From Verrucomicrobium sp. (lineage in GTDB: Bacteria; Verrucomicrobiota; Verrucomicrobiia; Methylacidiphilales; GAS474), in the NCBI GenBank assembly GCA_028283855.1, contig JAPWJX010000003.1, forward strand, positions 248,001 to 312,000: a DNA stretch of 64,000 nucleotides, written 5' to 3'. Made by a program: the position numbers and the translations under genes. The notes under the pieces were generated by a model, which searched no databases, had not been told where the DNA came from, and saw only the letters and a program-made list of their open reading frames with translations. How positions within the stretch are numbered: position 1 is the stretch's first letter; every line of letters begins with the position of its first letter. Shown here piece after piece: positions 23,483 to 64,000 of this stretch.

Positions 23483-23575
23483 CCGCGTTTCTTATCCCTC
23501 CGGCTCGAAAAATCAATCGCTCTCGAAGGGAAACCACGCACGCGGAACCCCTACCCAAAACATAAGAATATATAC

Positions 23576-23592
23576 TCTATTGACTTAATAGA
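23576..23592. promoter_or_regulatory. AT-rich divergent promoter region with a short inverted repeat
   Basis: The arms TCTATT (23576-23581) and AATAGA (23587-23592) flank GACTT. They lie in the unusually AT-rich part of the 135-bp gap between the GDSL hydrolase (minus) and a hypothetical gene (plus). TTGACT inside it could serve as a -35 and TAGGCT at 23602-23607 as a weak -10 with a 16-bp spacer. Evidence is limited to this pattern. Confidence 0.35.
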
Positions 23593-23617
23593 ATATTGGA
23601 ATAGGCTAACCCCCATT

Positions 23618-28855: not shown

Positions 28856-28868
28856 ATGGGGGGAGCCG

Positions 28869-29501
28869 ATGCCGACGACCTTCCTCCTCTCTCCCGCGCG
28901 GCTCGACGGAAGGCGGGCGGCCCTTCTTTTCCACCCCCAGGCCGATTTCCCTTTGGCCCAGCGGTTGCGGGCGGGAAAGGTCCCGTTGGGGGAGGTCTTC
29001 AGCTTTCTCAGCGGCCTCTATTTTCGCGGGAAATACGCGTATGCCGCCCACTTCGGCACCGCGCTGGTCATCACCTCCAACCGGGGCCTGCTTCCCGCCC
29101 AGGAGCCGGTCGGGCTGGGGGAGCTTTCCCGCTTTTCCCGCGTGCCGATCGATCCCGCCGACCCGCGCTACCGCGGGCCGCTGGAGGCTAGCCTCGCGGC
29201 CGCCGCGGCCCAGGCGGGGACGGAAACCTCCTTTGTCCTCCTGGGGAGCCTGGCTACGGACAAATACACGGGAATCCTGCGCGCGGCCCTAGGCGCGCGG
29301 CTTCTCTTTCCCCCCGCTTTCCTGGGCCGGGGCGACATGAGCCGGGGCGCGCTGCTCCTCCGGCAGGCGGCTCTTTCGGAAGAGCTGGAATACGCCTCGA
29401 TCGCAGCCCTGCCTCCCCAGGCAAAAGCGCCGGCACCCCGCGCCGTCCCTGTGCAGAATGCAGCCGTACGAGGAGGCAGGCGCCTCCGCCGAGCTATTTA
29501 A
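28869..29501 (+). CDS. Conserved hypothetical next to the LigD-like gene
   Basis: I do not recognise a named family. The 210-residue product is soluble. Its N-terminal half includes a conserved-looking FSFLSGLYFRGKYAYAAHFG and ALVITSNRGLLP. The middle contains SFVLLGSLATDKYTG and LLFPPAFLGRGDMSRGALLL. The start lies 13 bp after the LigD-like stop, so the two are probably one transcript, which hints at a role connected with DNA repair or nucleotide handling (inference). The basic end (RGGRRLRRAI) could contact nucleic acid. Confidence 0.72.
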   Translation: MPTTFLLSPARLDGRRAALLFHPQADFPLAQRLRAGKVPLGEVFSFLSGLYFRGKYAYAAHFGTALVITSNRGLLPAQEPVGLGELSRFSRVPIDPADPRYRGPLEASLAAAAAQAGTETSFVLLGSLATDKYTGILRAALGARLLFPPAFLGRGDMSRGALLLRQAALSEELEYASIAALPPQAKAPAPRAVPVQNAAVRGGRRLRRAI

Positions 29502-29570
29502 AATTTACTGGGGGCCAATGGGTTACGGATATTTTTGGCTCCCTGGAACAGAGGATGCCCCCTGGGAGGG

Positions 29571-30167
29571 ATGAGCACGCACACCAACTATGCCATGCGC
29601 CGCAATCAGAACGTTGGCGCAGGCGAAAAGATCAAAGAGAAGGCCACGGCTCTCTACGAGAAAATGACCGGCCAGGATAAGGTCACCACGCTGGAAGATC
29701 TCTTTGTGGAGCAGCTGCAGGACCTTTACTCCGCCGAAACGCAGCTGATCGAAGCCCTGCCGAAGATGGCCGAGGCGGCAAACAATATCGAATTGCGCCG
29801 CGGCTTCCAAGTCCACTGGGAGGAGACAAAGGGCCACGCCCGCCGCTTGGAACAGATCCTTTCCCGCATGGGGAAGAGCGCCAAGGGCAAGACCTGCAAG
29901 GCGATGGAAGGCCTCATCAAGGAAGGCGGCGAGGCGATTTCCGAAAACGCCACCCCCGAGGTGAAGGACGCCGCCCTCATCGCCGCCGCGCAGCGCGTGG
30001 AGCATTATGAGATCGCCGGCTACGGAACCGTCCGCACCTACGCGGGCCTTTTGGGCGACGGCGTCGCGCAGAAAATGCTCCAGCAGACCCTCGACGAGGA
30101 AGGCGCGACCGACAAAAAGCTGACCGCCGCCTCCGAGAAGCTCAACGTCATGATTCCCATCTCCTAA
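29571..30167 (+). CDS. YciE/DUF892 ferritin-like protein
   Basis: This 198-residue protein belongs to the YciE/DUF892 family of ferritin-like four-helix proteins. It shows LEDLFVEQLQDLYSAETQLIEALPKMAEAA, split in two recognisable helices; HWEETKGHARRLEQI, with the expected metal-binding Glu and His positions; and RVEHYEIAGYGTVRTYA. The family is linked to stress and dormancy in many bacteria, with possible metal binding. I chose the ATG at 29571, which follows GGGAGGG closely; an upstream TTG in frame has no support. The transcript is ended by the terminator at 30178-30219. Confidence 0.88.
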   Translation: MSTHTNYAMRRNQNVGAGEKIKEKATALYEKMTGQDKVTTLEDLFVEQLQDLYSAETQLIEALPKMAEAANNIELRRGFQVHWEETKGHARRLEQILSRMGKSAKGKTCKAMEGLIKEGGEAISENATPEVKDAALIAAAQRVEHYEIAGYGTVRTYAGLLGDGVAQKMLQQTLDEEGATDKKLTAASEKLNVMIPIS

Positions 30168-41805: not shown

Positions 41806-44017
41806 TCAGTAGACGATGCGGATGCCGCCCGTGATGCTCTGGGCGGAGTAGTTTTCCTGGCCGATCTGCGCGTCGTAGCGCACGAAGACCAGGGAGCCGC
41901 TGTTGAGAATCATGCTGACGCCGCCGCCGAGCACCGCCGCGTCGCGCGGCAGGCCGCTGGCGTTGACGGTGAAGGCGCCCGTGCCGGGGACGACGAAGGC
42001 CTCGCCGATGGTGTGGGAGGTGTCGAGGCACTCGTGCTGCCAGGAGGCGTCGAGCTGCGGGCGGATGGTCAGGCGGCGCCAGGTGGTGTGGAAATCGTAG
42101 CTGACGCGGCCGCCCAGGTTGGCGACGAAGGAATCGACGCTTTGGGTGCCGATGAGGAGGTTGCTGGCCCCGGCGCCGGTTTCCATATAGGAGCCGATGT
42201 TGATGTGGGTGTATTGGCCGCCCAGGACCGGGCCGTAGGTCAGGTTGCCCGCGTGGAACTTGTAGCCGGTATCGAAGGCAACACCGTATTGGTCGCCGTC
42301 CGGCTTGCCCTGGGCCACGGCGTTGGTGATGGGCACGGCGCGGGTGACGGTACCGACGTTGAAGCCGTAGTAGCCCCGGCCGTTGATGTACCAATCGCCC
42401 CGGGTGTAGCTGCCGTAGGGGCCGAAACGGTAGTTGTTCATCGCCAGGCGGCTGCCCAGGGAGTCGAGATCGGCCGTGGTCCGGCCGTAACCGCCCAGGA
42501 AGCCGATCGTCCATTCCTTGCTCAGGCGGTAGTCGGTGCCCACGGTGAAGTCGACCGTGGTGGTGTCGACCGCGTTCTGGGTGGCGGTGGCCGACTGGCT
42601 GGCCAGGATGGCGTTGCCGGTGACGAAGGTGCCCCAGCGGCGCAGGAGCGGGTCGTCCCCGCCCACCTGGTCGGGCGTGTCGGTCATGGTCGCCGTGTCG
42701 GATTGCATGGCGGGATTGAAGGCGTAGAGCTGGCCGGAGAGCTGGGAGAGGCCGGGGTTGTCCGCGTCGACCAGGCTCATGCCGCTCCAGTCCATGCCGC
42801 CGGTCAGGCCGCTGCGGATCGCCTCCAGGCGGTTGTCGAGGAGGACCCCCTCGAAGACCAAGTCGCTGAGGACCTGATGGTTGATGGTGTTGACCATCGT
42901 CTGGATCTGGGAATTGTTCCCCAGGTTTCCGGAAGAGGGAACGGCGTTGAAGTCGCCGCCCGCGCCGTTGAAGTTCTCGTAGGTGTAGGAGACGCCGTTA
43001 ATGACCAGGGTGCCGCTGTTCGGATGGGCTTCCAGGTAGGCATTGGCCGCCGCGGCGTCATAAGCGGAGATGCTTAGGTTGAGGTGCAGGTAGGAATATT
43101 GCGCCGTCTCGCCCACAGCAAGGGAGGTATTGCCGTCGATGATGCCGTTGATGGTGGGGAAGCCGCTCAGGGTGATGTTCACCACCGTGGTGCTGGAGCC
43201 GCCCGCGCCGATGGCGATGCCGCCCGGGGCGTTGATGTTGCCGCTGTTCGTGATGGTGACCGAGCCGGTGGAGGAGGCGTAAATGCCGTAGAGGCTGCCG
43301 CTGCCGGAGACGTCGATATTTCCGGAATTATTGATGCTGATCGACCCGCCGCTGGAGGAGGAGGCGTAGATGCCGTAGGCGGATGAGCCGCGGCTGGCCA
43401 CGGTGATGTTCGCCTGGTTGATCAGGTCGATGTTGCCCGCCACCGTCCGGGCGGAAAGGCCGACGGCGGAGCCCCCGCCGGAAGCGCCGCTATGGCCCAC
43501 GGCGACGTCTCCCGCGTTCGACACGGAGATGTCCCCGGAACCCGCGGTCTGCGCGTCGAGGCCGTAGAGGGAAACGGCGGCCGCGCTGGTGTCGTCGGCG
43601 GAAAGGTCGCCCGCGTTGACCACGCTGACCAGGGCGCTGCCCAGGCTCTGGTAGGTCCGGATGGCCGCCGCCCCCCCGCCGCCGCCGGTGGCGGTCACGG
43701 AACCCTGATTGGTCACGGTCACTCCGCCCGTGCCGGCGTTCTCCGCATCGACGCCGGTGGCCCGGGCGCCGGTGCTTTGGACGTTCACCTGGCCGGTGTT
43801 GTAGACGAAGGCCGCGCTGGCGCTGGAGGCGCTGCCTTCCACCGCGTGGATGCCGAAGGCGTTGGAGGAACCGATGCCGGTCACCGAGCCCGCGTTGCTC
43901 ACCGTGACGCCGCCCTGGCCGGAGTTGACCGCGTCGAGCACGGCCGTGTTCGTGCCGGAAAGGGAGCTGAGCGCGCCGGTGTTGCTCACCGTGACGGCGG
44001 CGGTGGAAGCGGCGTCG
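41806..44017 (-). CDS. Giant autotransporter: C-terminal passenger end and beta-barrel
   Basis: This is the 3' part of the autotransporter gene after the frameshift near 44,017. Its first 250 or so residues continue the beta-helix repeats (NTGALSS, VTVSNAGSV, GIYASS) seen in the frame upstream. A linker follows, then a 12-strand-type autotransporter beta-barrel beginning near LLRRWGTFVTGNAILA, containing WTIGFLGGYGRTTADLDSLG, and ending in RIVY. The C-terminal aromatic residue is the usual outer-membrane assembly signal. The passenger is expected to be exported through this barrel. The reading frame alone starts at 43989, but the true start is beyond the right edge of the window. Confidence 0.85.
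42950..43190 (-). repeat. Pre-barrel linker, copy 2 (adjacent to barrel)
   Basis: It encodes TINGIIDGNTSLAV, YLHLNLS, AYLEAHPNSGTLVING and SYTYENF. It matches the segment at 58320-58560 position by position and directly precedes the beta-barrel here. Confidence 0.75.
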
Positions 44018-47000
44018 CAGCTCGTAGGCGCGGATGGCGGTGCCGCCGCCGGAAACCGCCGCGAGGTTCGTCACCCCGACGCCCGACGCCCCGGCGTTTT
44101 CCACGTCGAGGCCGATGCCGTTGAGGCCCCCGGCGGAGACCGCGCCGGCATTGGTGAGGGTCAGGACGTTCAGGTTGTTCGTGTTGGCCTGGACGTCGCG
44201 GATGCCGATGCCGTTGGTCCCGGTGACGGAGACGGTCCCGGAGTTGACGATGTTCTGCAGGCCGGTGCCGTCGTTCTCCACCCAAAGGCCGACGCTGGCG
44301 CCCAAGGTGTCGGAAACGGTGATGCTGGCGGTGTTGGTGACGGAGACGTCGGCCGTAGAAGAGGCGTTGGCCTCCACGGCGCGGATGCCCGCGCTGCCCC
44401 CGCCGCCTCCCGCCACGGTGATGGAATTGGTATTGAGGACGACCACCCCGCCGGTGCCGGTGGTGCTGGCGTCGATGCCGGTGGCGGTGCCCGCCGCGTC
44501 GACGGCCCGGACGGCCCCGTAATTGGTCAGGGTGACGGTGTTGGTGTTGGCCGCGTTGGTCACCGCGGCCAGGATGCCGGTGGCGCCGCCGCCGCCGCCG
44601 TTGGCGGTCACGCTGTTCGTGTTAAAGATGTTGAGGATGCCCGTCCCCGCCGTTTCGGAGTCGATGCCCATAGCCTTGCCGCTGCTGTTGTTGGCCACGA
44701 TGACGCCGGTGTTCGTCACGTCGACAGGGTTTACGCCGGAGATATAGATGCCGTAGGTGTTCGTCCCGTTGATGGTGATGGAGCCGCTGGACTGGACCTG
44801 GGCGTCTTCCGGGCTGGCCACGTAGATGCCGTAGGCGCCGTCGCCGGTGGAGTTGATGGTGCCGCTGTTGGTCAGGGTGACGACGCCGTTGGCGTAGGCC
44901 GCGATGCCGACGGCGCCCGCGCCGCTGTCGGTGATGTTGCCGCTGTTGACGATGGCCACGTCGCCCGCGCCCATGTTCGTGACGCTGATGCCCGCGGCGG
45001 TGCCGGAACCGCTCTCCACCGCGCTGATGTTTCCGCTGTTGGTCACGACGATGTTGGCCGTGCTGGAGGCGTTGGTGTTCTGGATCTGGATGCCGATGGC
45101 GCCGCCGGAGCCGTTGTCGGTCAGGTTGATGCTGCCGGAGTTGCTCACGGCCAGGTTGCTCCCGCCGAACAAGTCGGAGGTGGAGACCAGGATGCCGTGG
45201 GAGATATTGGTGCCGCCCGCCGTGCCCGCCAGATACATGGCGCCGCTGTTGGTCAGGTTGATCGCCCCGTTGCCGCTGGCGTAGATGCCGTTGGCGCCGT
45301 TGCCGCTGATGGCGCTGGCGGCGGTGCCGAGGGAGCCGGTGTTGAGAATGTCGATCTCGCCGCTGCCGGCATTGACGGCGTAGATGCCGTAAGCGGCGCC
45401 GCCGCCGGTGTCCCGGGCGATCAAGGTGGCCGTGTTCGTGACGACGACCGCGGCGGTCGAGGTTCCGTTGGCCTCCACGGCCTGGATGGCGTAGGCGCCC
45501 TGGCCGGAGGCGATGGCGGTGACCGCCCCGGCGTTGCTCACCGTCACGCCGGAGGTGTCGGCGTTGAAGGCGTTGATGCCGGAGGAGGTGCCGCCGCCGG
45601 TGTTTGTCACGCCGATGGTGCCGGTATTCGTCACGGTATCGCCGCCCGCCCCGTTGTTGTAGGCGAAGATGCCGAAGTTGGTGGTGGCGCCGGTGGAGAC
45701 GGCCTGGATGGTCCCCCCGTTGAAGACCGCGACGCCGCCGCTGCCGCTGTTCTGGGCGTTGATGGCCTGCCCGTAACCGCCGCTGATGTTGATGGAGCCG
45801 CGATTGCTCACCACCACCATGCCGGCGCCGCCGACGTTGAAGGCCTGGATGCCGAATCCGCCACCGCCGCCCAGGCCGATGTTGGTCACGCTTAGCGCGC
45901 CGCCGTTCTCGACGTCGACGCCGCCGCCGCCCGAGTTGACCGCGTCGATGCCCAAATAATCGCCGACGTCGATCGTGGCCCCGGTCGCATTGGTCACGCT
46001 TACCAGCCCGGTGCCGGAAGTGCTGTTGTTGTGCGCCTTGATGCCGGTGACGCTGTAGCCATTGGCGGTGAGGGCCCCGCGATTGACAACCGTCACGGCG
46101 CCCGCGCCGGTCCCCTCGGCGTCGAGGCCGATGGAGTTCCCGCCGTAGAGGCCGGCGGTCTTGGAGACGACCACCGTCCCGGCATTGGTCAGGAAGACTC
46201 CGCCGGTGCCGTTATTGATCGCCTGCATGCCGTAAGAAGCGGCGATGGCGCCGGAAAGGAATCCGGCATCGGCCGTGATCGTGCCCGCATTGCTTAGGCT
46301 GATGAGGTCGGTGCCGCCGCTGTTGGTGGCATAAAGGCCTGTGACGCCCGCGCCGCCGGTGACGGCGGAGACGTTGTTGGTCAGGGAAATCGTGCCCAGA
46401 TTGGTCAGAAGGACCCCGCCCGTTCCGGCCGTGACGGCCTTCACGCCGTAGCTTTGGCTGACGGCGTTGACGGAGTCGACCCCCAGGGTCTGCGTGTTGG
46501 TGAAGGAAATCTGGTTCGTGTTGAGGGCGTTGTTCAGAGCCAGGAGAATGTCGGTGCCGCCGCCGATGGTGTTGGTGCCGCTGCCGATCGCCTGGATGGA
46601 GATGTTCTGGGTGTTCGCCACCAGGACCCGGCCCAGGCCGCTTTGCTGGGCGGAGAGGGCGGTCATGTATTGGGTCGAGTCGATATTGGGCAGATTCGTC
46701 ACCCCCGCCAGGATGGTGCCGGTGTTGCTGACGGAAACGTCGGCGGTGGCCGCGCCGTTCTGCTCCGCCGCCTGGATGCCGTAGGAACCGTAGACGGAAA
46801 GCACGCCGCCGTTGGAGACGGTCACGCCGCCCGTTCCCCCGTTAAGCGCCTGGATGCCGACGCCGCTCCCCGCCGAGGCGACGGTGTTGGTCCCCGTGTT
46901 GGTCACCTGGACGGCGCCCGTCCCGCGCGCATTGATGGCCACCATGCCGGAGGCCTGGCCGCTGCCGAAATTGCTGGTGAGGAGGTTGCCGCTATTGAGA

Positions 47001-50000
47001 AGGGTCACGCCGCCGTCGCTGGCGTTGCTCGCATACATGCCCCATCCGTCACGGGAGGTGACGCTGCCCGCGTTGGTTACGGAAATGAGGCCAGCGCCGT
47101 TCGCGTTGTAGAGATTGACCGCCGAAATACCGCGGGAGTATTGCGCGTCCGCGAGGATGGTGCCGGAGGCCCCGTTATAGACGGAAATCGCGCCGGTGCC
47201 GTTATTAAGGATGCCGATGCCGTCCATGCCGAGCGTGCCGACCGGGCTCGATCCGGTTATCGTCAGCGTGATGGCGCCGGTGTTGCTCACCGTGATCGCG
47301 CCGCCGCCGGAGTGGATAATTCCGATCGCCGCATCGTCGACGGCCGAGGCTCCGGCGGCCGCCGTGCTCTGGGCGAAGACGGTTCCGGCGTTGCTCACCG
47401 TGATCGCGCCGGTGGCGCCCGCGGCGTTGGTCCCTTCCAGGTAGATGCCGAAGACGGCTCCCGTGTTGGTCCCCGTGGGGGTGATCGCGTTCTGGTTGGT
47501 GACGTTGATGCTGCCCGTGTTCAGGATGGAGGAGCCGCCCGTGCCCGAGTTGGTCGCGTAAAGGCCGTAGCCCGCCGCCGTCCCGTTCACCTCCAGGGCG
47601 TTCAGCGCGGCGGTATTGGTGAAAGCCAGCTGATTGGCGTTGGCCGCGTTGGTCTGCGCCAGGCGCACCGCGCTGGCGCTGCTGGCGTTGGTCGACGCCG
47701 TGTTGCTGCTGGAGACGGAGATGTTCGTCGTCGTCACGCTCATGAGGCCGGTGCCCAGGCTGGAAGCGTCGATGCCGATGGCCGTGCCGTTGGCGGCGCT
47801 GACGGTGAGGGAGCCGGGATTGCTGACGGTCAGGGTGGTGGCGCCCGCCGCCCCCAGCTGGGCCAGGAGGCCGGTGGCCGATTGGCCGCGCGCGGTGATG
47901 CTGGAAGCGCCCCCGCCCAGAACGGCCAGGGAAGAGGCGCTGCGGGCGTTGATGCCGTAGGTCTGGGCGGCGTTGTTGGTGACGGAAATCGAGCCGAGGT
48001 TGGTGACGGTTTCCGCCCCGGCGCCGTAGTTGATCGCCTGGATTCCGTAGGAGACGCTGGTGTTTTGCGCCGAGCCGATGAGCGAGCCGTTGTTAAGGAC
48101 CACCAGGCCGCCTGAGGCGTTGTTGGTCAGGTTCACGACATCGGCCGCGCCCGAGGTGACGGAGACCGTCCCGTCATTGGTAAAGAGCAGCGATCCCGTT
48201 CCGGCTCCGTTGACACCGACGATGCCGAATCCGCCGCCACCGGCGAAGGGAACGAGGTTGATGGTGTTCCCGTTATAGAGAACGACTCCGCCGCCTCCGC
48301 CGTTGTTCGCGTAAATTCCGTAGCTGTCCCCCACGGTGATGGTGCCGGTGTTGGAAACGGTGAGAAGGGACGTGCCGCCCGTGCTGCGCGCCAAAATGCC
48401 GTAATCGCTCGTGGCGCTCACCGTCAGGGTCCCGGAATTGAGAACCGAGATGGGGCCGGATCCGGTCTCCGCGTCGATGCCGATGGAGCCCGATCCGGAG
48501 TAGCCCGCCAGGTAGCCGACCGCCACCGAGCCGGCGTTGGTCACGGAAACGCCGCCGGTGCCGCTATTGAGCGCCTGGATGCCATACTCCGCATTCGTGA
48601 ACGCGGTGTTCTGGCTCATCACGCTGACCGTCCCGCCGTTGCTGATGGAGATGGCGCCCGCGCCTGCGCGATTCGTCGCATAGATGCCTGTCATGCCGCC
48701 ATTGGCCGCCAGGGTGGAGACGTTCGTCAGGGTGACCGCGCCGGTATTGGTCATGGCCACGCCGCCCGACCCCAGATTGACCAGGGCGATGCCGTAGGCC
48801 CCCACGCTGGAATTGGTTTCCAGGATGGAAACGTTGTTCGTGTTGGAGAAGGAGATCGAATTGGTATTCGCCGCGTTGTTGAGGGCGATGCGGATGCCCG
48901 TGGCCGCATTGGTGCTGATCGCGGAAGCCGAGAGGCTCTGCACGGTAACGTCGGCGGAATTCATAAGGGTGGCGCCGCCCAGGCCGTTGTTCTCCACGTC
49001 GAGGCCGTAGGCGTAGCCGCCGTTGGTGTCGTAGGAGAGGATCGTGCCGTAGTTGGTCAGGACGGCGGCGCCGGTCGCGGCCGTCGATCCGTTCTGGGCC
49101 AGGATGCCGTAAGCGCCTCCGCCGCTGCCTTCGGCGGTGATGCTGTTGGTGTTGTAGACGTTGACGGGACCGTTGCCGGTCGTCGTGGCGGCGATGCCCA
49201 TGGCGACGCCTCCGGGGTCCTTGGCCACGATGACGCCGGTATTGGTGACGGTGACCGGATTGACCCCCGACACGTAGATGCCATAGGTGTTCGTGCCGTT
49301 GATGGTCAGATCCCCGGTGGAGTAGATGTTGGCGCTCTGCGGGCTGGCGACGTAGATGCCGTAGGCGCCGTTGCCGGTGGAGTCGATGTCTCCGGTGTTG
49401 CTGATGACCACGGTGCCGTTGACGTAAGCGGCGATGCCGCGGGCGTTGACGCCGGTATCGACGATGTGCCCGCTGTTCTGGATGGTGACGGTGCCGCTGC
49501 CCAGATTGGTGACGGTGATGCCCGCGGCCGTGCCGGTGCCGGAAGCCGTCGCGGTGATGTCGCCGCTGTTGCTGACGGTGATGCTGGCGGTGCTGCTGGT
49601 GTTGGAGTTGCGGGCCAGGATACCGGCGGCTCCCGCAGTGCCGGTGCTGCTCGCGCTGATATTCGCCCCGTTTGTCAGGAAGATGGCGCCGCCGCCGGCG
49701 GTGTCCGCGGTGGTGAGGGAGATGCCGTAGGCGATGGCCGTGCCGGTGGAGGTGTTCTGGACGTAGATGTCCGCCAGGTTGGTCGTGGTGATCGCCCCGT
49801 TGCCGCTGGCGTAGATGGCCGCGCCGCCGTTGCCCGCGATGGCGTTGGTGGCGGAGCCCAGGGCGCCGCTGTTGGTGATGTTGATCGCGCCGGTGCCGAG
49901 GTTTGCGGCGTAGATGCCGTAGGCAGCGCCGCCGTTGGTGTCGCGGGCGGAGAGGGCCCCGGTGTTTTGGATCGTCACGGCGCTCGTGGCCATCGTGTTG

Positions 50001-53000
50001 CTCTGCACGGCGGCGATGGCCCACGCTCCCCCGCCGCTGCCGGCGGCGGTGATCGCGGCGGTGTTCGTCACCGTCACGGCGCCCAAGCCCAGGCTGACGG
50101 CGTCGATGCCGTAGGCCAGGGAGCCGCTCACCGTGATGCCGCCGTCATTGAAGACGTTCTCCGCGCCCGCCCCGCGGTTGGAGGCGTAGACGCCGAAGAC
50201 GTTGCCAGCGCTGGTGGCGACGCCGCTGGTGATGGCCGCCGCATTGGTGACCAAGACGCCGCCGCTGCCATAATTCTCCGCGTCGATGCCGTAGGTGGTG
50301 CCCGCCCCGTTGGCATGGTTTAGCGTGATGGCCCCCAGGTTGGTGACCGTCACTAGTCCCGTGGTCCCCGCCAGGGTGTCCAGGGCCCGGATACCCATGG
50401 TGCTGTAGGGGCTCCCGATCGTTTGAATGGTATTGGTATTGAGCACCACGACCCCGCCGCTGCCGGCGTTTTGCGCGTCGATGTCCGGCGAGGCGATATT
50501 GCCGCCGAGGACGGAAATGGTCCCGTAGTTGGTGACGCTGACCAATCCCGTGGCGTTCGTGTTGGTGTTGTAGGCGCGGATGGCCCCCTCGCCGCCGCCG
50601 CCGCCCGCGACGGCAAGCGTGCCGTCATTCCGCACGGTGAGGGAGCCGGTGCCTGCCGAGGTGGCGGTGATGGATAGGGAGTAGATGCCGGTATTGCTGA
50701 TCGAGCCGCTATTGTAGATTGAAAGCGCGGCGGCGTTGTTCGTGTTCGATTCCGTAAGATAGATGCCGAAGCCGCCCGCTCCCTGGGCGGAAGCCAAGGC
50801 CCAGGCGTTGATGACGCCGGTGTTGCTGATGGAGACGGCGCCGAGCCCGGAGTCGGCGGCGCTGATGCCGTACGCCGTCTCGTAGTTGGTCGTCACGCCG
50901 GCCTGGGAAAGCTGCCGCACGTCGATCGTCCCACCATTGCTGACGAAGAGGCCCGCGGAGCCCCCGCCGTTGGTAACGGCGATGCCGGTGAGGGCGTTGG
51001 TGCCGGTGGTGTTGGCCGTTTGGACATTGGTCGCGGCGATGGTGGAGCCGTTGACGACCGACGTGCCGCCCGTGCCCGCGTTGGAGAGATAGAGGCCGTA
51101 GCCCGCCAGGGTCGCGTTGGTTTCCAGGACGGAATAGGCCAAGGTATTCGTGTAGGCCAGGGCGTTGGCGTTGGCGGCGTTCGACTGGACAAGCTTGATG
51201 CCGGTGGCGCCGCCGCCGATGGAGGTGACGGAGAAGGCGCTGGCCGGATCCCGGTAGAGGAAGAGGCTGCCGGTGCCCGCCGTCTCCAGGTCGTAGCCGA
51301 CGGCGGCGCCGCCCTGGGTCTCCGTCACGTTCACGGTGCCCAGGTTGGTCACCACCACGTTGCCGGTGGAAGCCGCGGCGGTTTGCCGCGCCCGGATGCC
51401 GGTGGCCCCGCCGCCGCCCGCCACGACGGTGACCGTAGTGCCCACCCCGTTGGTGACGGCAATCAGGCCGCTGGTCCCCGTGCCGGTGGCGTCCAGGCCG
51501 ATGGCGTAGCCGGTGATGCCGGTCGTGGTTTGGTTGAGGGCGCTGACGGTGCTGTTGTTGACCAAGGTGATCGCCCCGCCGCTGAGGACGGAGATGCCGT
51601 TCAAGCCCGCGCTGGAAGCAAGCAGGGTCTCCGTATTGGTGGCTGTGACGGAGTTGTTGTTGGCCAGGCTGACGCCGCCCGTCCCGTCGTTCTCCAGCTG
51701 GAGGCCGTAGCCGGTGCCGACGGCGTTGGTCTCCAGGACGGTGACCACGTAGCCGTTGGTGAGGGAGAGAAGGTTGGCGTTGGCTGTGTTTCCCTGGATG
51801 AGGCGGATGCCGACGGCTCCTTGCGCGCCGCCGGAGCTGCTGGAGCTGCTCACCGCGGTGACGTTGTTGCTGTTGGCCAGCACGACCCGGCCCAGGCCGT
51901 TGTTCTCCGCGTCGATGCCGATGGCCAAGCCCCCATTGAGGTGGCTGGCGAGAATCGAGCCCGTGTTGGAGACGACGACGTCGTTCGTGCTGGCGTTGCC
52001 GTAGAGGATGGCCTGGATGCCCAGGGAGCCGACGGCCGATCCCCCGCTGGCCACCGCGCTGATGGCCCCGGTGTTGTAGACGACGATGCCGCCGGTGCCC
52101 TGGCTCTTGGCCACGATGCCCGCCGCGCCGCGGTCGTCGCCGGAAGCGCCGCTGGAAAGAGCGCCGATGTTGTAGACGTTCACGCCGCCGGTGCCGGAGT
52201 TTTCCGCGTCTAGCGAGGTGCTGTAGCCGCCCACGTTTCCGGTGTTGGTCAGGTCGACCAGGCCGGTCGCGCCCGTGCCGGTGTCGAAGGCCTGGATGCC
52301 GGTGCCGAAGTGGTTCACCGCCGTGTTGGTGATCGTGTTTTGGTTCAGGACGGCGACACCGCCGGTTCCCGCGTTGCGGGCGTCGATGCCGATGCGGGTG
52401 GTGTTCCCCAGGTTGCCGGTGATGACGCCGGTGTTCGTCACGCTGACCAGGCCGGTGGTTCCCGTGCCGGTGTCGTACGCCCGGATGTTGACGCTGGTGT
52501 CGCCCTGCGTGGCGGTCAGCGCGCCGGTGTTGTAGACGCTCACGCCGCCGGTGCCGGCGTTCTGGGCGTCGATATTGGCCGTGGTGCCGCCCGCGCCGAC
52601 GGGGGCGGTTATGGTGGCGGTGATGGTCCCGGTATTGCTGACGCCGACCATGCCGACGCCGGCGGTGTCCGTGTTATAGGCGCGGATGCCGGAAACCACC
52701 TCGCTGGAGCCGGACGCGCCGACGCCCGCCACGGTGATGGTGGTGGAGCTGGTGACCGTCACGGCCCCGGCGCCGGTGTTCTGCGCGTCGATGCCGACGG
52801 CCCCGGCGATGTTGGTGGAGGCCGTCTCCTGGCTGGTGACGGTGATGATGTCGTTGTTCTGCACCTCCACCGCCCCGGCGCCGCCGCCCTGGGCGTGGAT
52901 GCCGTAGAGCGTGCCGCCCGCGTTTTGCTGCTGGTTAAGGACGTTGGTGACCACGATGCCGCTGTTGTTCACCAGCGAAACGCTGCCGCTGCCCAGGGTG

Positions 53001-56000
53001 CTGGCGGAGATGCCGTAGCTGGTGGAAATCGCATTGGTCAGGATCAGGGTGATCGGGTTGTTGTTGGTGAAGCTCAGGCTGTTGGTGTTGGCCGCGTTGT
53101 TCTCCGCCAGCCGGATGCCGATGGCCCCGCCGACGCTGCCCGCGCCCGCCGCCGTGCTGGTGACGGTAAGCGGGTTGGTATTGACCACGGTGACGGCGCC
53201 GAGGCCGGTGGTCTGGGCGTCGATGCCCACCGCCACGCCGCCATTGGTGTCCTTGACCTGAAGGGTGCCGTAGTTGGTGACGCCCACGGCTCCGTCGCCC
53301 AGCGCCCGCATGCCGACCGCGCCGCCGCCGGAACCGCTGGCGATAATAGAGCCGGTGGCGCTGTTCACCACGTTGATGTCGCCCGTGCCGGCGTTCGTCA
53401 CGTCGATGGCCGCCACCGCGCCGCCCGCGGTGTGGCGGACGCTGACCGTGCCGGCGTTAAAGACCGTCACCGCTCCGTCTCCCTGGCTGTTTGCGTAGAT
53501 GCCGTTGAGGGAGGAGGCGCCGCCGAAGTTGGTGATGCCAGAGACCTGAATGGACTGGCCCGCCAGGTTGACGACGGTGATGCCTCCGTCGCCGTAATTT
53601 TCCGCGTCGATGCCGGTAGTGTTGGCCGGATCGAGGTTGGGATTGGGCTGGCTCGCGTCGGAGGAGGCGCCGGCGGTCAGGGTGATGTTCCCCCCGTTGG
53701 TGACCAGGACGAGGCCGGTGGCACCCGCGCCGGTATTTACCGCCTCGATGCCGATGGCCCACTGCGGCGTGCCGTTGGTGGTGGTGATCGAGTTGAGATT
53801 GACCACCGTCACGCCGCCGGTGCCGGCGTTTTCCGCGTCGATGCCGACGGCCAAGCCCTGGGCGTGGCCCCCGATCAGAATGGATCCCGTGTTGCTGACC
53901 TGGACGAGGCCGGTCGCCCCCGTCGCGGCGCTGATGGCCCGGATGGCGGTGGTGGTGATGCTCCAGTCGGACTCGGTGGCGCCCGATCCGTAGACGGCGA
54001 TGGAGCCGGTGTTGTTCACCGTGACGGCGCCGGTGCCCGCGTTTTTCACGTCGACGCCGACGTTCGTGGCGATGGTGCCGGAGAAATAAAGGTCCGGGAT
54101 GGTGACCACGGTGATGGCTCCCGTGTTCTCCACCAGCACGTTGCCGGCGGCGCCGCTGTTCGTCGCCGCCAAGCCGATGAGGCTGTTGCTGGGAGAGACC
54201 GTGTTCGGGACCGGTATTTCCAGATAGTTTGTCAGGGTAATGGTGCCGTTGTTGGAGAGGGAAATGCCCGCGGATCCCCCATTCTCAGCCGTGATGCCGT
54301 AGCTGCGGCCGACGGAATTGGTCTCCATCACGGCAACGGAGTTGCCATTGGTGAAGGTGAGCTGGTTGAGATTGTTCGTGTTGCTCTGCACGATCCGGAC
54401 GCCCGTGGCCCCCAGGGCGATGTCGTTGGTGAGGGTGGGGGCGCTGACCACGCTGATGGAGCTGGTGTTGAGGACGGCGGTGAGGCCGGTGCCCGCGTTC
54501 TCCGCGTCGATGCCGTAGGCCGCGCCGCCGTTGGTGTCGCCCGCGACGATGCTGCCGCTATTGGTGACGGTGACGGGACCGGTGCCGTTTGTGTTGGTGG
54601 CCAAGGCCAGGATGCCGAAGCCGCCGCCGCCGCCCCCCATGACGCTGATTCCGTTCGTGTTCAGGACGTCGACGCCGCCGGTGCCCGCGTTCTCCGCGTC
54701 GATGCCGTAGGCGGCCAGGCCGGGATCGTCGACGGTGACGGTGCCGTAGTTGGTGACGTCGACCAACGCGGACGAGTTGGCGTTGAGGAGGAGCGCCCGC
54801 AGGCCGACGGCGCCCTGGCCCTTCACGGCGATGAGGCCGTTGTTCCAGACGCTCACGCCGCCGAGGCCGGAATTCTCCGCGTCGATGCCGTAGCCCGCGC
54901 CGATCAGGTTATTCGTGGTGGCCAGGTCGGCGACGACGACCGAGCCCGTGTTGCTGACGGAGACGCCGCCCGCCCCGGCGCCGTTCGTCGCGTAGAGGCC
55001 GGCCAGGGAGCCGTTGGTGCTCAGGATGGAGGAGACGTTGGTCGCGTCGATCGATCCGGTGTTGGTGAGGGAGACGCCCGCTCCGCCCGCGTTGAGGGCC
55101 TCGATGCCGTAGCTGGCGGTGGTGCCGTTGGTCTCCAGCAGAGTGATGCTGCCGTCCGTGGTCAGGGTGAGCGTGCCGGTGTTGGAGGGATTGCTCAGGA
55201 TGGCCCGGATGCCGATCGCCCCGGGAGTGCTGTTGGTGGCGTTGCTCACGGTGGCCGTGACGTTAATGGGACCCGTGAAGGCCAGGCCCAGGGAGCCGAG
55301 GCCGTCGTGCCGCGCGTCGATGCCGATGACCGCGCCGCTGTTGGTGTCGGTGACGCTGATGCTCCCTTCGTTGGTGATGTTCAGGGCTCCGGTGCTGGTG
55401 GCGGAGGAGATGTAGGCCTTGATGCCGATGTTGCTGCCGCCGCCGGACCCGGCGATCGCGATGTTGGCCAGGGGGCCGTTGCTCACCGTGATGCCGCCGT
55501 TACCGCTTTGCTCGGCATCGATGCCCTGGGCGAAGCCCGCGCTGTCGTTGATCGTGATCGCGCCGCCGTTGGTGATGGCGATGGCGCCCGTGCCGCCGTT
55601 GAACGCGTAGATGCCGACCAGCTGGTTGGTGCCGTAATCGAAGGTGCCGCCGCTGGCGGTGAGCGTGATGTCCCGTCCGGCCTGGTTAAGGACGGTGACG
55701 CCGCCGGAGCCGGCGTTCTCCGCGTCGATGCCCGCGGTGGAGGCCGGATTGCTGCCGCCCGCCGGATTGGCGACGAGGCCGAGGCCCGCGACGTCCAGCG
55801 TGATGGCGCCGTCATTGGTCACGCTGACCGCGCCCACGGCGTTGGTGTTCCGGTTCACCGCGTCGATGCCGAAGGCCCAGACGCCGGAGTAGATGCCGAA
55901 GGAGTTGGTGGTGCCGGTGTTGGTGATGGCGCCCGAATTGAGGATGGAGATCCCGCCCAGGCCGTTGTTCTCCGCCAGGATGCCGGTGGCGACGCCGCCG

Positions 56001-59000
56001 CCGCTGATGGTCAGCTGCGCGCCGTTGGTCACACTGATCGAGTTGGAGGCCGTTTGGGAGCTGTTCACCGCCAGGATGCCGACGGTCTCGTAATTCCAGC
56101 TGCCCGCCCCGGGTCCCACCACCAGCGTCTCCACCGTGCCGCTGTTTTGGATGAGGAGGTCGCCCACGCCGTTGTTCGAAGCGCCCAGGCCCAGGGCCTC
56201 GCCCGGCGTGTTGAAATAGGCCGTGCCGTTCAAGGTGGCGACGATTGAGCCGGTGTTGCTGATCGTCACCCCGCCGCTGTTTGCCCCGTTGGAGGCAAAA
56301 ATGCCGTAGACGGTGCCGACCGAGCCGCTGGCCAGCACGTCGGAGATGTTGATCGTCCCGCCGTTGACGACCGCGATGGCGCCGGTGCCCTGGTTGTTCA
56401 GGCGCAGGCCGTAGTTGTCGGCGAAGGCGTTGGTGAGGTTCATCGTCAACGCGCCCTGGTTGGTCAGGGTCAGGTCGTTGGCGTTGTTCGTGTTGTTGAG
56501 GGCCAGATTCAGGCCGATGGAGGAACCGCCGATGCCGCCGTCGGTCCCGCCGGAGGTCAGGGTGATCGGGGCGGTCGTGTCGACGCTCACGCCGCCCAAG
56601 CCGTCATTCTGGGCGTCGATGCCCAGGACGGCCGCGCCTTTCCCGCCGCTCACGTTGAGCGCGCCGGTGTTGCCCACGTCGACGGAAGCCAGGCCGTTGG
56701 TTCCCGCCTCGATGGCCACGATGCCGGTGGCGGTGCCGCCGTTGGGACCGGCGATGTTCATGGTATTCGAATTGCGGACGATGATTCCTCCCCCTCCTTG
56801 ATTGGTGGCGTTGATGCCGGCAAAGAAGCCGCCCAGGCTGGAAGAGGTGCCGAGCACGCCGGTATTGGTGACCGTGACCGCCCCCGTCCCGTTGGTGTTG
56901 GCGTTGATTGCCTGGAGGACGATCGCCGAGCCCTGGGACGACCTGGCCGAAACGGAGGCCGTATTGGAAATGGAGACCCCGCCGGTTCCGTCGTTCTCCG
57001 CGATGATTCCGTAGGCGTTGCCAAGCGTCGTAGCCAGAACGACGCCGGCATTGGTGACGGCGACGTCGCCGCTCGTGTTCGTCCCGGAAACAATCGCCCG
57101 GATGCCGACGGCCTGCGCCGAGGCCGCATTGCCGCTCGCGGTGATGCCGCCGGAGTTGCGAACGAGGACGGAATCCTCGCCCGCCCCGTTGGCGTCGATG
57201 CCGAAGGCCGTCAGCGGCGTGCCCAGGCCGGAGACGCCGGTGGCGGTCGCCACCAGGGCACCGCCGTTTTCCACGTCGATCGCGCCGGCGCCATTGGTGT
57301 CGGTATGGTAGGCGCGCAGGGCCACGGCGTCATAATTCGCGTTGGTCCCGCCGGAGACGCTGTTGGTCGCGGTGATTGCGCCGCTGTTTTGGATGGTGAT
57401 GAGGCCGGTGGCCGCGCTGGCCGCGTAGATGCCGTAAGCGAGGCCGCCCTGCTGGTTGTCCGTGGCGGTGAAGTTCGCGCTGTTGGAGATCGTCACCGTC
57501 GCCGTGCTCGCGTTGTTCGTGTTGTAGGCCGCCAGGCCGATGGCGCCGGCGCCGTTGCCGCGGACGTAAAGCTGGCCGTCGTTGCGGACGAGCACGTCGC
57601 CCGTTCCGGAAAGGTCGCCCGTCGTCGCGGAGATGCCATAGCTGGTAAGCGTGGTGCCGAAGTCCTGGCTGACGTAGATCGAGCCCGCCGCCTGGTTCTC
57701 CACGGTGACCGCGCCCTGGCCGGAGACGACGATGGCCCCGGTTCCCTGCCCCTGGATGGCGGAGTTGCTGCTTCCGATGACGCCCGCGTTGACCACGGAA
57801 ATGGCACCGGTCCCGGCCTCCGCCCCGATGCCGTAGGCGGTGCCGACGCGGCTGTCGATGAAGAGGGAGCCCGTGTTGGTGATCGTGATGTTGCCGCTGC
57901 CGTAGGTGCCGTTGGTCGAGAGGGTCGATGCGTGGATGGCGCTCTTCCCTGCGCCCTGGTTGAGGGCGCTGATCGTGCCCGCGTTGGAGATGGAGATGTC
58001 GCCGTTGCCGGTGGAAAGGCCGAAGGCCCGGATGCCGTCCGCGTTGGCGTTGTCGATGTTGATGCCCGCCGTGGCCGCCACGGTGATCGTCGTGTTGTGG
58101 TCGCTCGCGTTGGCGATCGCGCCGGAATCGGTCCCCTGCGGCGCCTCGACGACGGTGGCCGTGCCGACGAGGGCGAAGTTGGTCGTGCTGCCGTCGGCGG
58201 CGCCGCGCACGGCGTCGATCTCCCCGGTATTGGTGATGTTGGTCGTCACGCCCGCGCCGTTGGTGACGATTTCCGGGTCGTAGCCGACGGCGTTCGACCA
58301 TTGGTTGGTGTCGAGCTGGAGGAGCTTGGCGTCGGTGAAGTTCTCGTAGTTGTAGGTCTTGCCGTTGACGATGAGGCTGCCGTTGTTCGGATTGGCGGCC
58401 AGGTAGGCCTGCGCGGCGACGGTGTCCGCGTAGCTCAGGCCCAGGAGGCGCAGGTAAAGATGGGAGTCGTCCGGGTTCACGGCGGAGTAGTTGCCGTTGA
58501 TCATCCCGCCGATCGTCGGGGAGGAGCCGCCCACCGTGACGGAGATCGCCAGGCTGGAAGAACCGCCGACGTAGATGGCGTAGCCGCTGCCGCCCACGTT
58601 GATGTCCCCGCTGACGTTGATCGTGATGGAGCCGGTCGGCGTGCTGGCGTAGATGCCATAGTTCTGGCCCGACCCGCCGGAAATGCTCATGCCGCCGACG
58701 TGGGCGATGGAGGTGATGCTGATGTCCGAGTTGCCCACCGCGTAGATGCCGTAGTTGTTCCCCGAGCCGCTGCCCACCACCGTGACGCCGCCGCTGTTGT
58801 TCACGTTCACCGCCCCCGAGCCGAGGTTTTCCGCCCAGATGGCCGCGGCGGCGCCACCGTTGGTGTCCCGCGCGGTCAGGCCGGAGGCGTTGATCAGGTC
58901 GATGTCGGCGGAGGAGGCGGCGTTGTTTTCCAGCAGATGGATGTCATAGGCACCGCCGCCGCCGCCCTGGACGTTCATTCCCGCGTAGAGCTTGCCGTTG

Positions 59001-62000
59001 AGGGCGCCCAGGCCGTCCGTCTCCAGGTTGACGCCGTAGGCCACGCCGCTCAGCGCGGTCACGTTGAAGCTGTCCGCGTTGGTGATGCTGGCGACGGCGG
59101 TGGAGAGCGCGTTGTGGATGATCGTGTTGATGCCCGTGGCGTTGGCGCCCGTGACGGTGATGCTGGTGGCGCCGCCGCCGCCCGCGGCGTCGCCCGTGCC
59201 CCAGGACTGGACGTCGATGCCGACGGCGTCGCCCCCGTGGGTGTCGGAAACGTTCAGCGCGCCCGTGCCGAGCGTCACGGTGACCGTGTTGGTGCTCGCC
59301 GCGTTGGTGTTCCAGGCCTGGATGCCGATGGCCCCGGCCCCGGCGCCGACGACGGTGGTCCGGCCCGCGTCCTGCACGCTGATGTTGCCGTTGGGGGAGT
59401 AGACGGCGATGCCGTACCCCGTCTCCGTTCCCGTTCCGGAAAGCTGCACGTTGATAAAGCCGGTGTTCTGGTTGATGAGGGAGATGTTTCCCTGGCTGTT
59501 GATGAGGATGCCGCCGCCGTCCTGGGCGTTGACGGTGACCACGTTCGTCGTGATGAGGCTGACCGACCCGCTGCTGGCGTTTTGGATCTCCACCCCCACG
59601 GCGGAGGCGCCCGCGGCGTTGACGGTCAACGCGTTGTTGTCCGAGTAGGTGATCGCACCCATGTTGGTGGCGGTGGAGGTGGAGGTGTTGTTGATCAAGA
59701 CGCCGCGCGTGCCGTCGCCGCCGGTGACGGACATCGCGTTGGTGAATTGGAGGGTGACGCTGCCGAGGCCCGCGTTCTCCACATCGTAGATCACCGCCCG
59801 GCCGCTGGTGGCCACCACGTTGAGGCCGCCCCAGCCCATGTTGATGCCGTTGGTGGAGCTGGCATTGGAAATGGTGGCCAAGGCGCCCGTCGCCGTGGCC
59901 CCCTGGATGGTGCCGCCGCCGGTGTTTTGCAGGGAGATGGCGCCCAGGCCGTCGGTCTCCGCGGCGACCCCGACGACGGCGCCGCTGCCGCTCACATTCA
60001 AGGTGGCTCCGTTGCTCAGGATAACCGTCCCCGCCGAGGCCGCGTTGGTCACCGCCGCCAGGATGCCGGTCACGTCAGTCCCGCTGGCGTTGACCGTGCC
60101 GTAAGACTGCACCGTCACGTTGCCCGTGCCCGCGGAAACGGCGGAGATGCCCAGGGCGGTGCCGCCGGAGGTGCCCGCGGCGCTGACCGTCCCGAAGTTG
60201 GTGACGATCAGGTTTCCCGCCCCCGACTGGAAACCGGAAATGCCCGTGGCCAGCCCGCCCGCCGAGGCGGCCGTGACGGTGCTGAAGTTCTTCAGGGCCA
60301 GATCCCCGCTGCCGTCGCCAGCGCCCTCTATGCCCGTGGCCGGACCGCTGCCGGTCTCGATCGCGTTAATGGTTCCCTGGTTGCTCACCGTCACCCCGTT
60401 GGTCGTGCCGCCCGAATTGGTCGCCAGGACGCCGACGGCGCCGCCGCCGTTGGCCGAATTGGTGACGGAAATCGCGTTCGTATTGAGCACGGCGACCAAG
60501 GCGCCGCCGGAAGAGGAGGCGGCGACGCCGGTCAATCGGCTGCCGCTGCCGGTCACGTCGATGGTGCCGAAGTTGGTCACAAAAACCTGCCCCAACGCGT
60601 TGCCGCTCTGGGCCACGACGCCCGCCGCCATTCCCGTGCCGGAGGCGTTCACCGTCAGGGCGGCCCCGTTGGTGTTGAGAACCCGCACGCCGCCCTGGGC
60701 CAGCGTCTCCGCGTCGATGGCCGCCGCCGCCGTGCTTTGGCCGCCCCACGTATTGGAAGAGGAACCGCTCGTGACGGCGGTGACGAAGACCGAGCCGGAG
60801 TTGCTCACCGTGGCCAGATACGCGGCGGGGCCGGAGTTGGTGGAAAGATTGTAGGCGGCGATGCCGACCGTGGCGTCGGCGCCGCTGTTGGTGACCTGGC
60901 CGGAGTTGGTGATGTCGACCAGGCCGGAGCCGAGGGTGGAACCGCCGATGCCCAGGGTGGCGCCGCTGCCGGCGGTGCTTCCGTTCACCGAGCCGGTGTT
61001 CAGGATGATGATCCCGTCGGCCCCCGCGGCGTTCGTGTTCGCGGCGACAAGGCCCGCCGCGCCCGCGCTGGAGGAGGCGGCCCCCTGGACGGTGACCGAG
61101 CCCTGGTTGGTAATGCGGGAGGCGCCGCCGGTCGCCGCGTCGGCGGTCAGGGCCAGGACGCCATAGGTTGTGTTGGTGTCGCCGGACTGGCTGGAAACAT
61201 TGATTGAGCCGCCCGCCAAGTTGGTGACGGTGACGCCGACCCGGCCGGAGGCCAGGACGCCGAGGCTGCGCGTGCCGGAAATGGCGTTGCTGGAGGTGCC
61301 GATCTGGCCGCCGTTGATGACCGTCACGATGTCATTGGCCAGGTTGGTGGCCACGACGCCGATCGCCTGGCCGCCGGACGCGTCGACGGCCTCGATCGAG
61401 CCGCCGTTGGTGACGAGGACCGAGCCCGTCGCCCCCGATTCCGAGGCGGTGATGCCGAAGGCCCCGTTGCCGGCGCCCGTGGCGGCGATCGATCCGGTGT
61501 TGCTGACCTGGACGGAGCCGGTCGTGGCCGTCGCCCCGATGCCTGTGCCGGATTGCGTGCCGGTGACGGTGATCGTCCCGGAGTTACTCACGCTCGTCGC
61601 GCCCGCCCCGGCATTGTCCGCCTGGATGCCGGTGGCCGTGCCGCCCGTGCTGGCAATCGCGCCCGAGTTGGTGACGGAAACCGCGTTCGTGCTGAGGCTG
61701 GCGGCGGAATAGGCCTTGAGGCCCGTCGCCTGCACGCCGGAAACCGTCACGCCGCTGGTGTTCAGGAGCACGACGGCCCCGTTGCCCAATCCCTGGGCGT
61801 CGACGCCCAGGGCGGCGCCCGCGCTGCTCGTGGCGGCAACGGCGCCCCGGTTGGAAAGAGTGACGGTGCCGGTGCCGTAAACTTCCGCCTGGAGGCCTTC
61901 CACCTGGTTGGTGCCGGTGGCGGATACGGTGCCGGTATTGGTAAGGAGGACCGCGTCGCCCCCCGCCGCGTTCGTGTTCAGGGCGGAGATGCCGTAGGCC

Positions 62001-64000
62001 TGCAGGCCGATGGCGCTGATCGTCCCGGCGTTGGAAACCTGCAGCGGCCCCGCCACCAAGGTGTCCGCGGTCACGGCGGAAATGCCGTAGGCGGTGCCAC
62101 TGCTGCCGGCGCGGTTCTGCGCGTAGATGGAGCCGGCGGCGCGGTTGACGATGGTCATCGCGGAAGGCCCGGTGGCCAGGATGCCGTAACTATTCGTGCC
62201 CGTGATCGCGTTGGTGGCGGTGCCAAGCGCGCCCGCGTTGGTGACGAGGATGTTCCCCGCGCTGCTGATGGCGTTGAGGCCGATGGCCGCGCCGTTGGTG
62301 GAATAGGCGGCGATGGTGCCGACGTTGGAGAGCGTCACCGTGCCCGCGCTGACCGTCACGCCGGTGGAGGTCCCCTTGACGCCGATCGCCATGTTCCCCG
62401 CTCCGGCGGCTTGCGCGGTGATCGAGTTGGAGTTGATAAGAAGGAGCGGATTGTTTCCGGAAACCTGACCGGCGATGCCTGCCGCCTGGCCGCCGGAAGC
62501 CGTCACGACAAGGCTGCCGCCGTTGACCGCCAGAACCTGGGTGCCGGAAGAGGTGTTGGTGTCCTGCGCCAAGATGCCGGTGGCCGCGGTGCCGACCACC
62601 GTCACGCTGCCGGTGTTGGAGGCCGTCAGCGTCCCAGTCCCCCCCTGCACCGCACGCAGGCCGTAGACCACGGCCGTCCCAAAGCCGCTGGTGTCCGTGA
62701 CGGAAAGGGTGCCGGCATTGGAAAGCAGAAGCGCGCCGCCTCCCGTCGCCACGCCGTAGAGGCCGGTGGCGCCCGCCAGGCTGGCGGTCAGGGTGAGGGA
62801 GCCGGTGTTCAAGAGGCGGACGCCGCCGTTCCCGTCATTTTCGCCGTAGATGCCGATCCCGGCGTTGCCGTTGCTGTTCGTGTCGAGGGCGGTGATGGTG
62901 CCCGCGTTGGTCACGGAGAGGAGCCCGGTGGTGCCGCTGTGGCTGTTCACCGCGCGGATGGCCTGGTAGCCGGCGCCCGTGCCGGTGACGGAAAGCGCCC
63001 CCGCGTTGGTAATCTGCACGGCGCTGCCGCCCAAGGTGTCGGTCGTCACCGCCTGGATGCCGTACGCGACGGTGCTGCTGCTGCCGTTACTGACTACAAT
63101 GCTGCCGGCGGCCTGGTTTTCCACCGTGAGCGCGCCGTGGCCGCTGAGGTTGATGGCCGTCTCCCCCACTCCCTGGATCGGATTGGCCAGCGTCCCGATG
63201 GAGCCCCCGTTGCGCACGGTGAGGGCGCCGGTGCCGCTGCTCTGTACGTCGACGCCATAGGCGTAGCGCGTCGTGCTCAGGGAAAGGAGCGCACCGTTAT
63301 TGACGATGGTGACCGCGCCGGTGCCTGCCGTGTTCGTGTTCTGGACGGAGATGGCGGTGGCGGTTCCGCCCGGGGTGCTGTCGACCACGGAGACGATGCC
63401 GTTGTTGGTGATCTGGACGGCGCTGCCCGCCGCGCTTTCCGCCGTGACGGCGTGGATGCCGTAGGCGGCGTTCGTCGCCCCGGTGCGGTTCCGGACATAG
63501 ACGGAGGAACCCGCCAGGGTGCTGATGTTGATCGCCCCGGCGCCGATCGCCTCGATGCCGGTCGAGCCGTTGCCGGAGATCGTTTGCCCGAGGCTGCCGA
63601 TCGCCCCGCCGTTGACCAGATTGAGCGTCCCCGCGCCGCCCCGGGCGCTCATGCCGACGGCCGTTCCCGCAGCGGTCGCCACGTAGATCGATCCTGTGTT
63701 GGAAAGGGTGACCACGCCCGCGCCGTAAGCGCCGTTGGTGTTGAGGGTCGTCCCCTCGACGCCGAAGACGGAGGCCGTCCCGTTCGTAATAAAAATGGTG
63801 CCCGCATTGGAAATGGCGATGTTCCCCGTGCCGTAAGTCAGGCCGGTGGCGATGATGCCGCTCTCCGCGCCACTCATGTCGATCGTCGTCCCCGCCGCCG
63901 TGGTGATGGTGGTATTCAGATCGCTGGCGTTGAAGATGCCCGCGTTGTAGGGGGACGCGGGCGTGGCGGTGATCGTGGCGGTCCCCACCAGGGAGATCGT
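44017..64000 (-). CDS. Giant autotransporter: N-terminal passenger (open at right edge)
   Basis: About 6,660 residues of an adhesin-like passenger, entirely made of degenerate beta-helix coils with the theme GIxAxNxGTGxVxVxNxGxI. The frame is open to the last base, so the signal peptide and start lie outside. Asn, Gly, Thr, Val and Ala dominate, with almost no Cys or Lys. That composition suits a long right-handed parallel beta-helix, and at one coil per roughly 20-25 residues it would extend over 100 nm (inference). An in-frame copy of the linker normally placed before the barrel sits near 58.3-58.6 kb. Likely role: surface attachment or shielding. The frame ends in shadow sequence at 43490; the true continuation is the other frame. 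Confidence 0.85.
44150..56500 (-). repeat. Intermediate cassette repeat (about 1.1-1.3 kb) inside the passenger
   Basis: A recognisable block with the pattern NNxANTNxLxFTN, then ExN, then YGI, recurs near 56470, 55180, 54365, 53085, 51775, 51160, 48855, 47630, 46510 and 44165. Many gaps are near 1.2 kb or twice that. Each block is followed by GxGGVSLxNxGxI and a Thr/Asn-rich stretch. This is a larger unit of duplication above the individual beta-helix coils. Confidence 0.7.
58320..58560 (-). repeat. Pre-barrel linker, copy 1 (internal, without a barrel)
   Basis: It encodes TIGGMINGNYSAVN, HLYLRLLGLS, AYLAANPNNGSLIVNG and KTYNYENF. It aligns with the linker at 42950-43190 but is followed by a new passenger module beginning ALVGTATVVEAPQGTD rather than by a barrel. 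Confidence 0.75.

What the first reader, a model, noticed from the sequence alone, without database searches (positions are those of the whole stretch)
58180..64000. Two passenger modules, each with its own start and linker, but only one barrel
The segment near 64.0 kb (GTATITAT ... NASDLNTTITTAAGTTIDM) aligns with the one near 58.15 kb (GTATVVEA ... NASDHNTTITVAATAGINID), and both continue with matching TNGAYGAGVVTLSNTGS-type blocks. Each module ends in the same YENF linker (58.3 kb and 43.0 kb), but only the second is followed by a barrel. This looks like fusion of two tandem autotransporter genes, with loss of the first barrel.
Basis: partly seen in the sequence, partly recalled or inferred. 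Interest (0 to 1): 0.7.

Follow-up and report, generated by a model that had tools for sequence, protein, structure and literature searches.

The report
Autotransporter with serially repeated capped modules
A giant surface protein of an uncultured Verrucomicrobiota bacterium carries two complete beta-helix units in series, each with its own start and end cap, behind a single outer-membrane barrel, and its sister genes carry one and three such units; it is an unusual layout of an otherwise known secretion type.

Summary
In gene A (window 41.8-64.0 kb, minus strand, starting up to 267 bases beyond the window) the start domain recurs at 58.3 kb, directly after an internal copy of the YENF segment; the second YENF segment (43.0 kb) precedes the only barrel (PF03797). 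The assembly also has a frame break near 44.0 kb, between most of the passenger and the barrel.
The same genome has two related giants: B with three start/YENF modules and C with one (11,142 aa, unbroken). YENF segments lie only at module ends, six in the genome. Internal YENF segments of A and B group together against the barrel-adjacent ones (support 100/99), and junction-spanning DNA is shared between A and B. So the junction predates the A/B split and is not a private fusion of this gene. A one-module relative in another family of the order (G015) has the segment just before its barrel, the likely ancestral place.
AlphaFold models the YENF segment as a C-terminal beta-helix cap, then a low-confidence spacer and a new beta-helix. 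Whether the founding event was tandem-gene fusion or intragenic duplication cannot be decided. New variant of the type Va autotransporter.

The parts
63767..64000 (-). start domain 1 (N-terminal, right after the signal peptide; continues to 64126, outside the window)
   Evidence: C3:311767-312126; reading frame open to C3 312267 (window 64267)
58541..63766 (-). module 1 beta-helix repeats (module 1 about 1,930 aa in all)
   Evidence: translation; repeat spacing near 31 aa and no Cys
58325..58540 (-). internal YENF segment, predicted C-terminal beta-helix cap of module 1
   Evidence: AF2 strands + helix 224-236 + strands
58307..58336 (-). 10-residue spacer between cap and second start, within the low-confidence stretch of the model
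   Evidence: sequence; residues 263-275 pLDDT < 50
57947..58306 (-). start domain 2 (internal)
   Evidence: 53% identical to start 1
43174..57946 (-). module 2 beta-helix repeats, including 1.2-kb super-repeats shared with B and C
44000..44040 (-). frame break: passenger frame runs on to 43490, barrel frame is open from 44070
42958..43173 (-). terminal YENF segment, predicted cap of module 2, next to the barrel
41872..42618 (-). autotransporter beta-barrel PF03797, the only one of this gene

Best explanation
Gene A is a giant type Va autotransporter whose passenger is a series of independently capped beta-helices. Each module has a start domain, a long run of roughly 31-residue rungs, and a C-terminal cap (the YENF segment). 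In the one-module ancestor, as in paralogue C and the G015 relative, the cap sat only next to the barrel. One recombination joined a cap end to a start domain, before A and B separated, and gave a two-module gene; B later gained a third module by duplicating the junction region. In working proteins the single barrel would carry all modules out from C to N, each cap closing one helix and the spacer acting as a hinge. Shown: the architecture, the shared origin of the internal junctions, one barrel. Predicted: the cap and hinge structure. Inferred: export order, hinge, surface-adhesin role. As assembled, A itself is frame-broken, so whether it makes the full protein is open.
For: Start and cap counts 2/2 in A, 3/3 in B, 1/1 in C, nowhere else in the genome. 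Internal caps form one group, 100/99; A's own pair as one clade rejected, p-AU 0.0105. Internal starts group 90/91, weaker: A's two starts as one clade not rejected (p-AU 0.097). Junction-spanning DNA homology B-B 72% over 1.27 kb and A-B 67%. One-module relative G015 with the segment before its barrel. AF2 junction model, mean pLDDT 80.5: helix, cap, residues 263-275 below 50, second helix; residues 9-267 align with autotransporter UpaB (Z 14.9, rmsd 3.9, 214 aligned), residues 268-532 with the L. reuteri SRRP beta-helix (Z 18.2, rmsd 3.0, 219 aligned). No Cys in any passenger segment counted.
Against: The frame breaks in A and B, and the missing ATG/GTG at the start of A, leave open that A and B are decaying genes or assembly errors. 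Foldseek itself gave no PDB match below E 0.3 for the junction model; the structural support rests on the second-look aligner and on a three-sequence alignment. The 7-row linker tree with the distant G015 root does not resolve the internal group. Beyond the first 200 or so residues the modules of A are not colinear.
Confidence: 0.7

Rival explanations
1. Fusion of two tandem autotransporter genes with deletion of the first barrel and the second signal peptide.
For: The internal unit is complete: cap, short spacer, start domain. The residues after the internal caps of B (TGVT) equal those after B's terminal cap, as expected if the upstream part came from a gene end; intragenic duplication predicts the same.
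Against: No tandem copies in this genome; start domain absent from the 61 other genomes of the order; no barrel, pore-helix or signal-peptide remnant seen in the 9-10 residue spacer; needs one more event than intragenic duplication.
Confidence: 0.3
2. The internal cap is a working internal autochaperone: it restarts or stabilises folding part-way through export of a very long passenger.
For: Internal caps are conserved as a group and predicted to fold; published work holds that C-terminal rungs fold first and nucleate the rest (PMC5895577, passages).
Against: Paralogue C has a passenger of about 10,700 residues with a single cap, so length alone does not seem to require internal caps. No AC_1 (PF18883) match in this genome.
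Confidence: 0.2
3. A and B are pseudogenes or assembly artefacts and the multi-module form is never made.
For: One frame break in each of A and B; A has no ATG/GTG where B has ATG, only a TTG further up.
Against: Each gene is otherwise open over 22 and 27 kb, in A with coding-like codon use on both sides of the break; two separate genes share the module junction. In 200 kb scanned, 29 of 31 listed frame switches were ordinary gene ends with a stop nearby (the scan missed the break in B), so the assembly does not look generally riddled with indels.
Confidence: 0.3

Closest known systems
Type Va (classical) autotransporters with beta-helical passengers (Ag43, UpaB, pertactin type)
   Same: PF03797 barrel at the C-terminus, N-terminal export-like region, beta-helix passenger, a conserved element before the barrel
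   Different: Passenger capped and restarted two or three times in series, and 7,000-11,000 residues long; the review passages read give passenger lengths of 280-3333 aa for its largest adhesin group (PMC9289746, passages)
Autochaperone domain AC type 1 (PF18883)
   Same: Place: end of passenger, before the barrel; beta strands and helix (PMC5767081, passages)
   Different: No sequence match in this genome; here also found at internal module ends. In four other Verrucomicrobiota genomes 8 of 9 AC_1 matches lie directly before a barrel, one per barrel
Chlamydial Pmp autotransporters
   Same: Passenger with two beta-helical parts behind one barrel (PMC10715098, abstract)
   Different: There a repeat region and a middle region of different kind; here whole modules with repeated start and end domains

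Membership tests
Type Va autotransporter | C-terminal PF03797 barrel | tested here: met
   E 7.1e-49, over cut-off; also B and C
Type Va autotransporter | beta-helical passenger | tested here: met
   AF2 junction model and VIA matches to UpaB and other beta-helices; of the passenger only the 533-residue junction and the stretch before the barrel were modelled
Type Va autotransporter | signal peptide and start codon | tested here: inconclusive
   hydrophobic stretch before ADW read by eye, no predictor run; A has only a TTG upstream, B an ATG
Type Va autotransporter | passenger and barrel in one open frame | tested here: inconclusive
   A and B broken as assembled, which may be sequence error; paralogue C unbroken, 11,142 aa
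Autochaperone AC_1 (PF18883) | profile match at the end of the passenger | tested here: not met
   0 matches in G000; internal segment has no Pfam match over cut-off
Autochaperone (functional) | needed for passenger folding and secretion | not testable with these tools
   needs deletion experiments

The most novel reading that the evidence does not exclude
A class of autotransporters that secretes several separate, individually capped beta-helices in series through one barrel, with internal caps serving as folding stations and module number changing by exchange between start/cap junctions (one, two and three modules in paralogues of one genome).
Probability: 0.3. Interest if true: 0.6.

Novelty: new variant of a known kind. 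Interest (0 to 1): 0.42.

Why it matters
If these proteins are made, they give a natural test of how beta-helix passengers fold: one genome holds the same module in one, two and three copies behind related barrels, so the part played by the end cap can be separated from passenger length. They also show how giant surface proteins can grow by joining whole capped units as well as by adding single rungs.

Tried and rejected
Private fusion in gene A: rejected by the linker tree and AU test. Relatives of the YENF-plus-barrel region in genome contigs: 70 stretches matched a pattern, none confirmed. The same-genus genome G002 has two ordinary autotransporters (802 and 722 aa frames) without start or YENF segment; G001 has no PF03797 match but is 82% complete. 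Start, cap and passenger pieces have no Pfam or NCBIfam family over cut-off. Plain Foldseek of the junction model gave no match below E 0.3. Profile searches of PDB sequences: junction alignment 0 matches; terminal alignment 3, two of them barrel proteins. The terminal model is poor over the barrel (mean pLDDT 54.8), so its barrel matches are not used. A dN/dS estimate on the terminal region (0.52-0.68) is not used because extreme G+C distorts it. Slippery repeats at the frame breaks: none obvious on reading. Neighbouring genes: five scanned, ordinary enzyme and transporter families, no link seen. Papers: seven searches listed nothing whose title or abstract start describes serial capped passengers; the library holds open-licence papers only, and I read passages of three papers and one outline with abstract.

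Full report
Observation. The window is G000:C3:248001-312000 of a 2.56-Mb, nine-contig genome, 95.6% complete. The long minus-strand frame runs from beyond the window end (open to window 64267) to 43490, 6,925 aa. Start domain 1 is 64126-63767; a second copy, 53% identical, is 58306-57947. Directly before it is a YENF segment (58354-58337), whose second copy (42987-42970) precedes the only PF03797 barrel of the gene (42618-41872). The start window is the best of 183 module-1 windows against module 2 (274; 162 inner windows at most 242), and colinearity runs for about 200 residues.

The barrel lies in another frame (open 44070-41806) than the passenger; the break is near 44.0 kb. The gene has no ATG or GTG ahead of its signal-peptide-like stretch, only a TTG at C3 312264, while paralogue B has an ATG there. 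B is also broken once, near C3 412.5 kb. In 200 kb scanned for frame switches, 29 of the 31 listed were ordinary gene ends with a stop nearby; the two without were the break in A and a short weak one at C3 318028. The scan did not list the break in B, which I saw in the frames themselves. These breaks may be recent mutations or sequence errors; I cannot tell.

Paralogues. G000 has four PF03797 barrels: A; B (C3 406-433.5 kb); C (C3 842317-875745, one frame of 11,142 aa); D (1,040-aa frame, without strong start or YENF match). Starts and YENF segments number 2 and 2 in A, 3 and 3 in B, 1 and 1 in C. Genome-wide the linker profile has six strong places (217-245 bits) and 24 weak ones (28.2 bits or less); the start profile has six places. 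The profiles were built from these copies, so only the gap to the rest is evidence.

Origin of the junction. DNA comparison finds homology straight across the junction: B 7278-8543 with B 16071-17333 (72%), A 5372-6301 with B 16406-17326 (67%), in gene coordinates. On the 168-residue linker alignment the three internal segments separate from the three terminal ones with support 100/99, and holding A's own two together is rejected (p-AU 0.0105). Starts show the same split more weakly (90/91): holding A's two starts together is not rejected (0.097), holding B's three together is (0.038). The shorter tree that includes the distant G015 row groups only B's two internal copies. So the simplest reading is that the junction arose once, before A and B separated, and that B duplicated it. 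The spacer is 10 residues in A and 9 in B, without visible trace of barrel, pore helix or signal peptide. That fits one recombination at domain borders, whether between tandem genes or within one gene.

Relatives. The family is almost private: of 60 relatives, G000 included, the linker profile hits G000 and G015; of 62 genomes of the order, G000 included, the start profile hits G000 only; of 387 genomes of the phylum the linker-plus-barrel profile hits 54, nearly all in the barrel part, and the 71-column linker profile hits G000 and three weak places (G015 was not in that sample). G015, another family of the order, has a 1,049-aa one-module autotransporter with YQYENF ahead of its barrel, which marks that place as the likely ancestral one.

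Structure. The junction model (three-row alignment) has mean pLDDT 80.5: beta-helix, then strands and a helix (224-236) ending in the YENF strands, residues 263-275 below 50, then a new beta-helix. The second-look aligner matches residues 9-267 to UpaB (Z 14.9, rmsd 3.9, 214 aligned) and 268-532 to L. reuteri SRRP (Z 18.2, rmsd 3.0, 219 aligned); Foldseek alone gave nothing below E 0.3. The terminal model shows the same cap elements, with helix 225-237, but a poor barrel. I therefore read the YENF segment as a beta-helix end cap; this is from secondary structure and order, since the model coordinates were not inspected. The passenger segments counted contain no cysteine and show repeat spacing near 31, as expected of exported beta-helices.

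How it would work. Published work holds that passengers emerge C-terminus first and that the C-terminal rungs nucleate folding (PMC5895577, passages), and that an autochaperone at the end of the passenger is required in several autotransporters (PMC5767081, passages). By inference each internal cap would close one helix and the spacer would be a hinge. Internal caps do not seem to be needed for length as such, since C has about 10,700 passenger residues and one cap. In four other Verrucomicrobiota genomes 8 of 9 AC_1 matches sit directly before a barrel; the ninth is weak (E 0.048) and 9 kb upstream of the barrel in a 15,268-aa frame.

Verdict. It is a new variant of the type Va autotransporter, with caution because A and B are broken as assembled.

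Noticed in passing
G000:C3:842317-875745 (L012, L013): Paralogue C is an unbroken 11,142-aa frame: signal-like start, one cap, one barrel.
   Followed up: partly
window about 44000-44040: Frame break between passenger and barrel of gene A; a similar single break in paralogue B near C3 412.5 kb.
   Followed up: partly
C3 312204-312267 (just outside the window, 64204-64267): Gene A lacks ATG/GTG at the place where B has ATG, although a 19-base stretch just after it is identical in both; only an upstream TTG is left.
   Followed up: no
gene coordinates A 13980-15171, A 18504-19701, B 22741-23932, C 28853-30039: Super-repeats of about 1.2 kb are shared and shuffled among A, B and C; A 13059-14360 and C 4173-5468 are 75% identical, which suggests exchange between paralogues.
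   Followed up: partly
G127 contig C11, barrel at 4346-5110: A relative in the same class has a 15,268-aa open frame with a PF03797 barrel and a weak AC_1 match (E 0.048) about 9 kb upstream of it.
   Followed up: no
G136: One genome of the class has 23 PF03797 barrel places, frames up to 7,032 aa.
   Followed up: no
window 56798-61207 (+) and C3 865318-873246 (-): Very long antisense open frames (1,469 and 2,642 aa) opposite the repeat passengers, probably a by-product of G+C-rich codon use.
   Followed up: no
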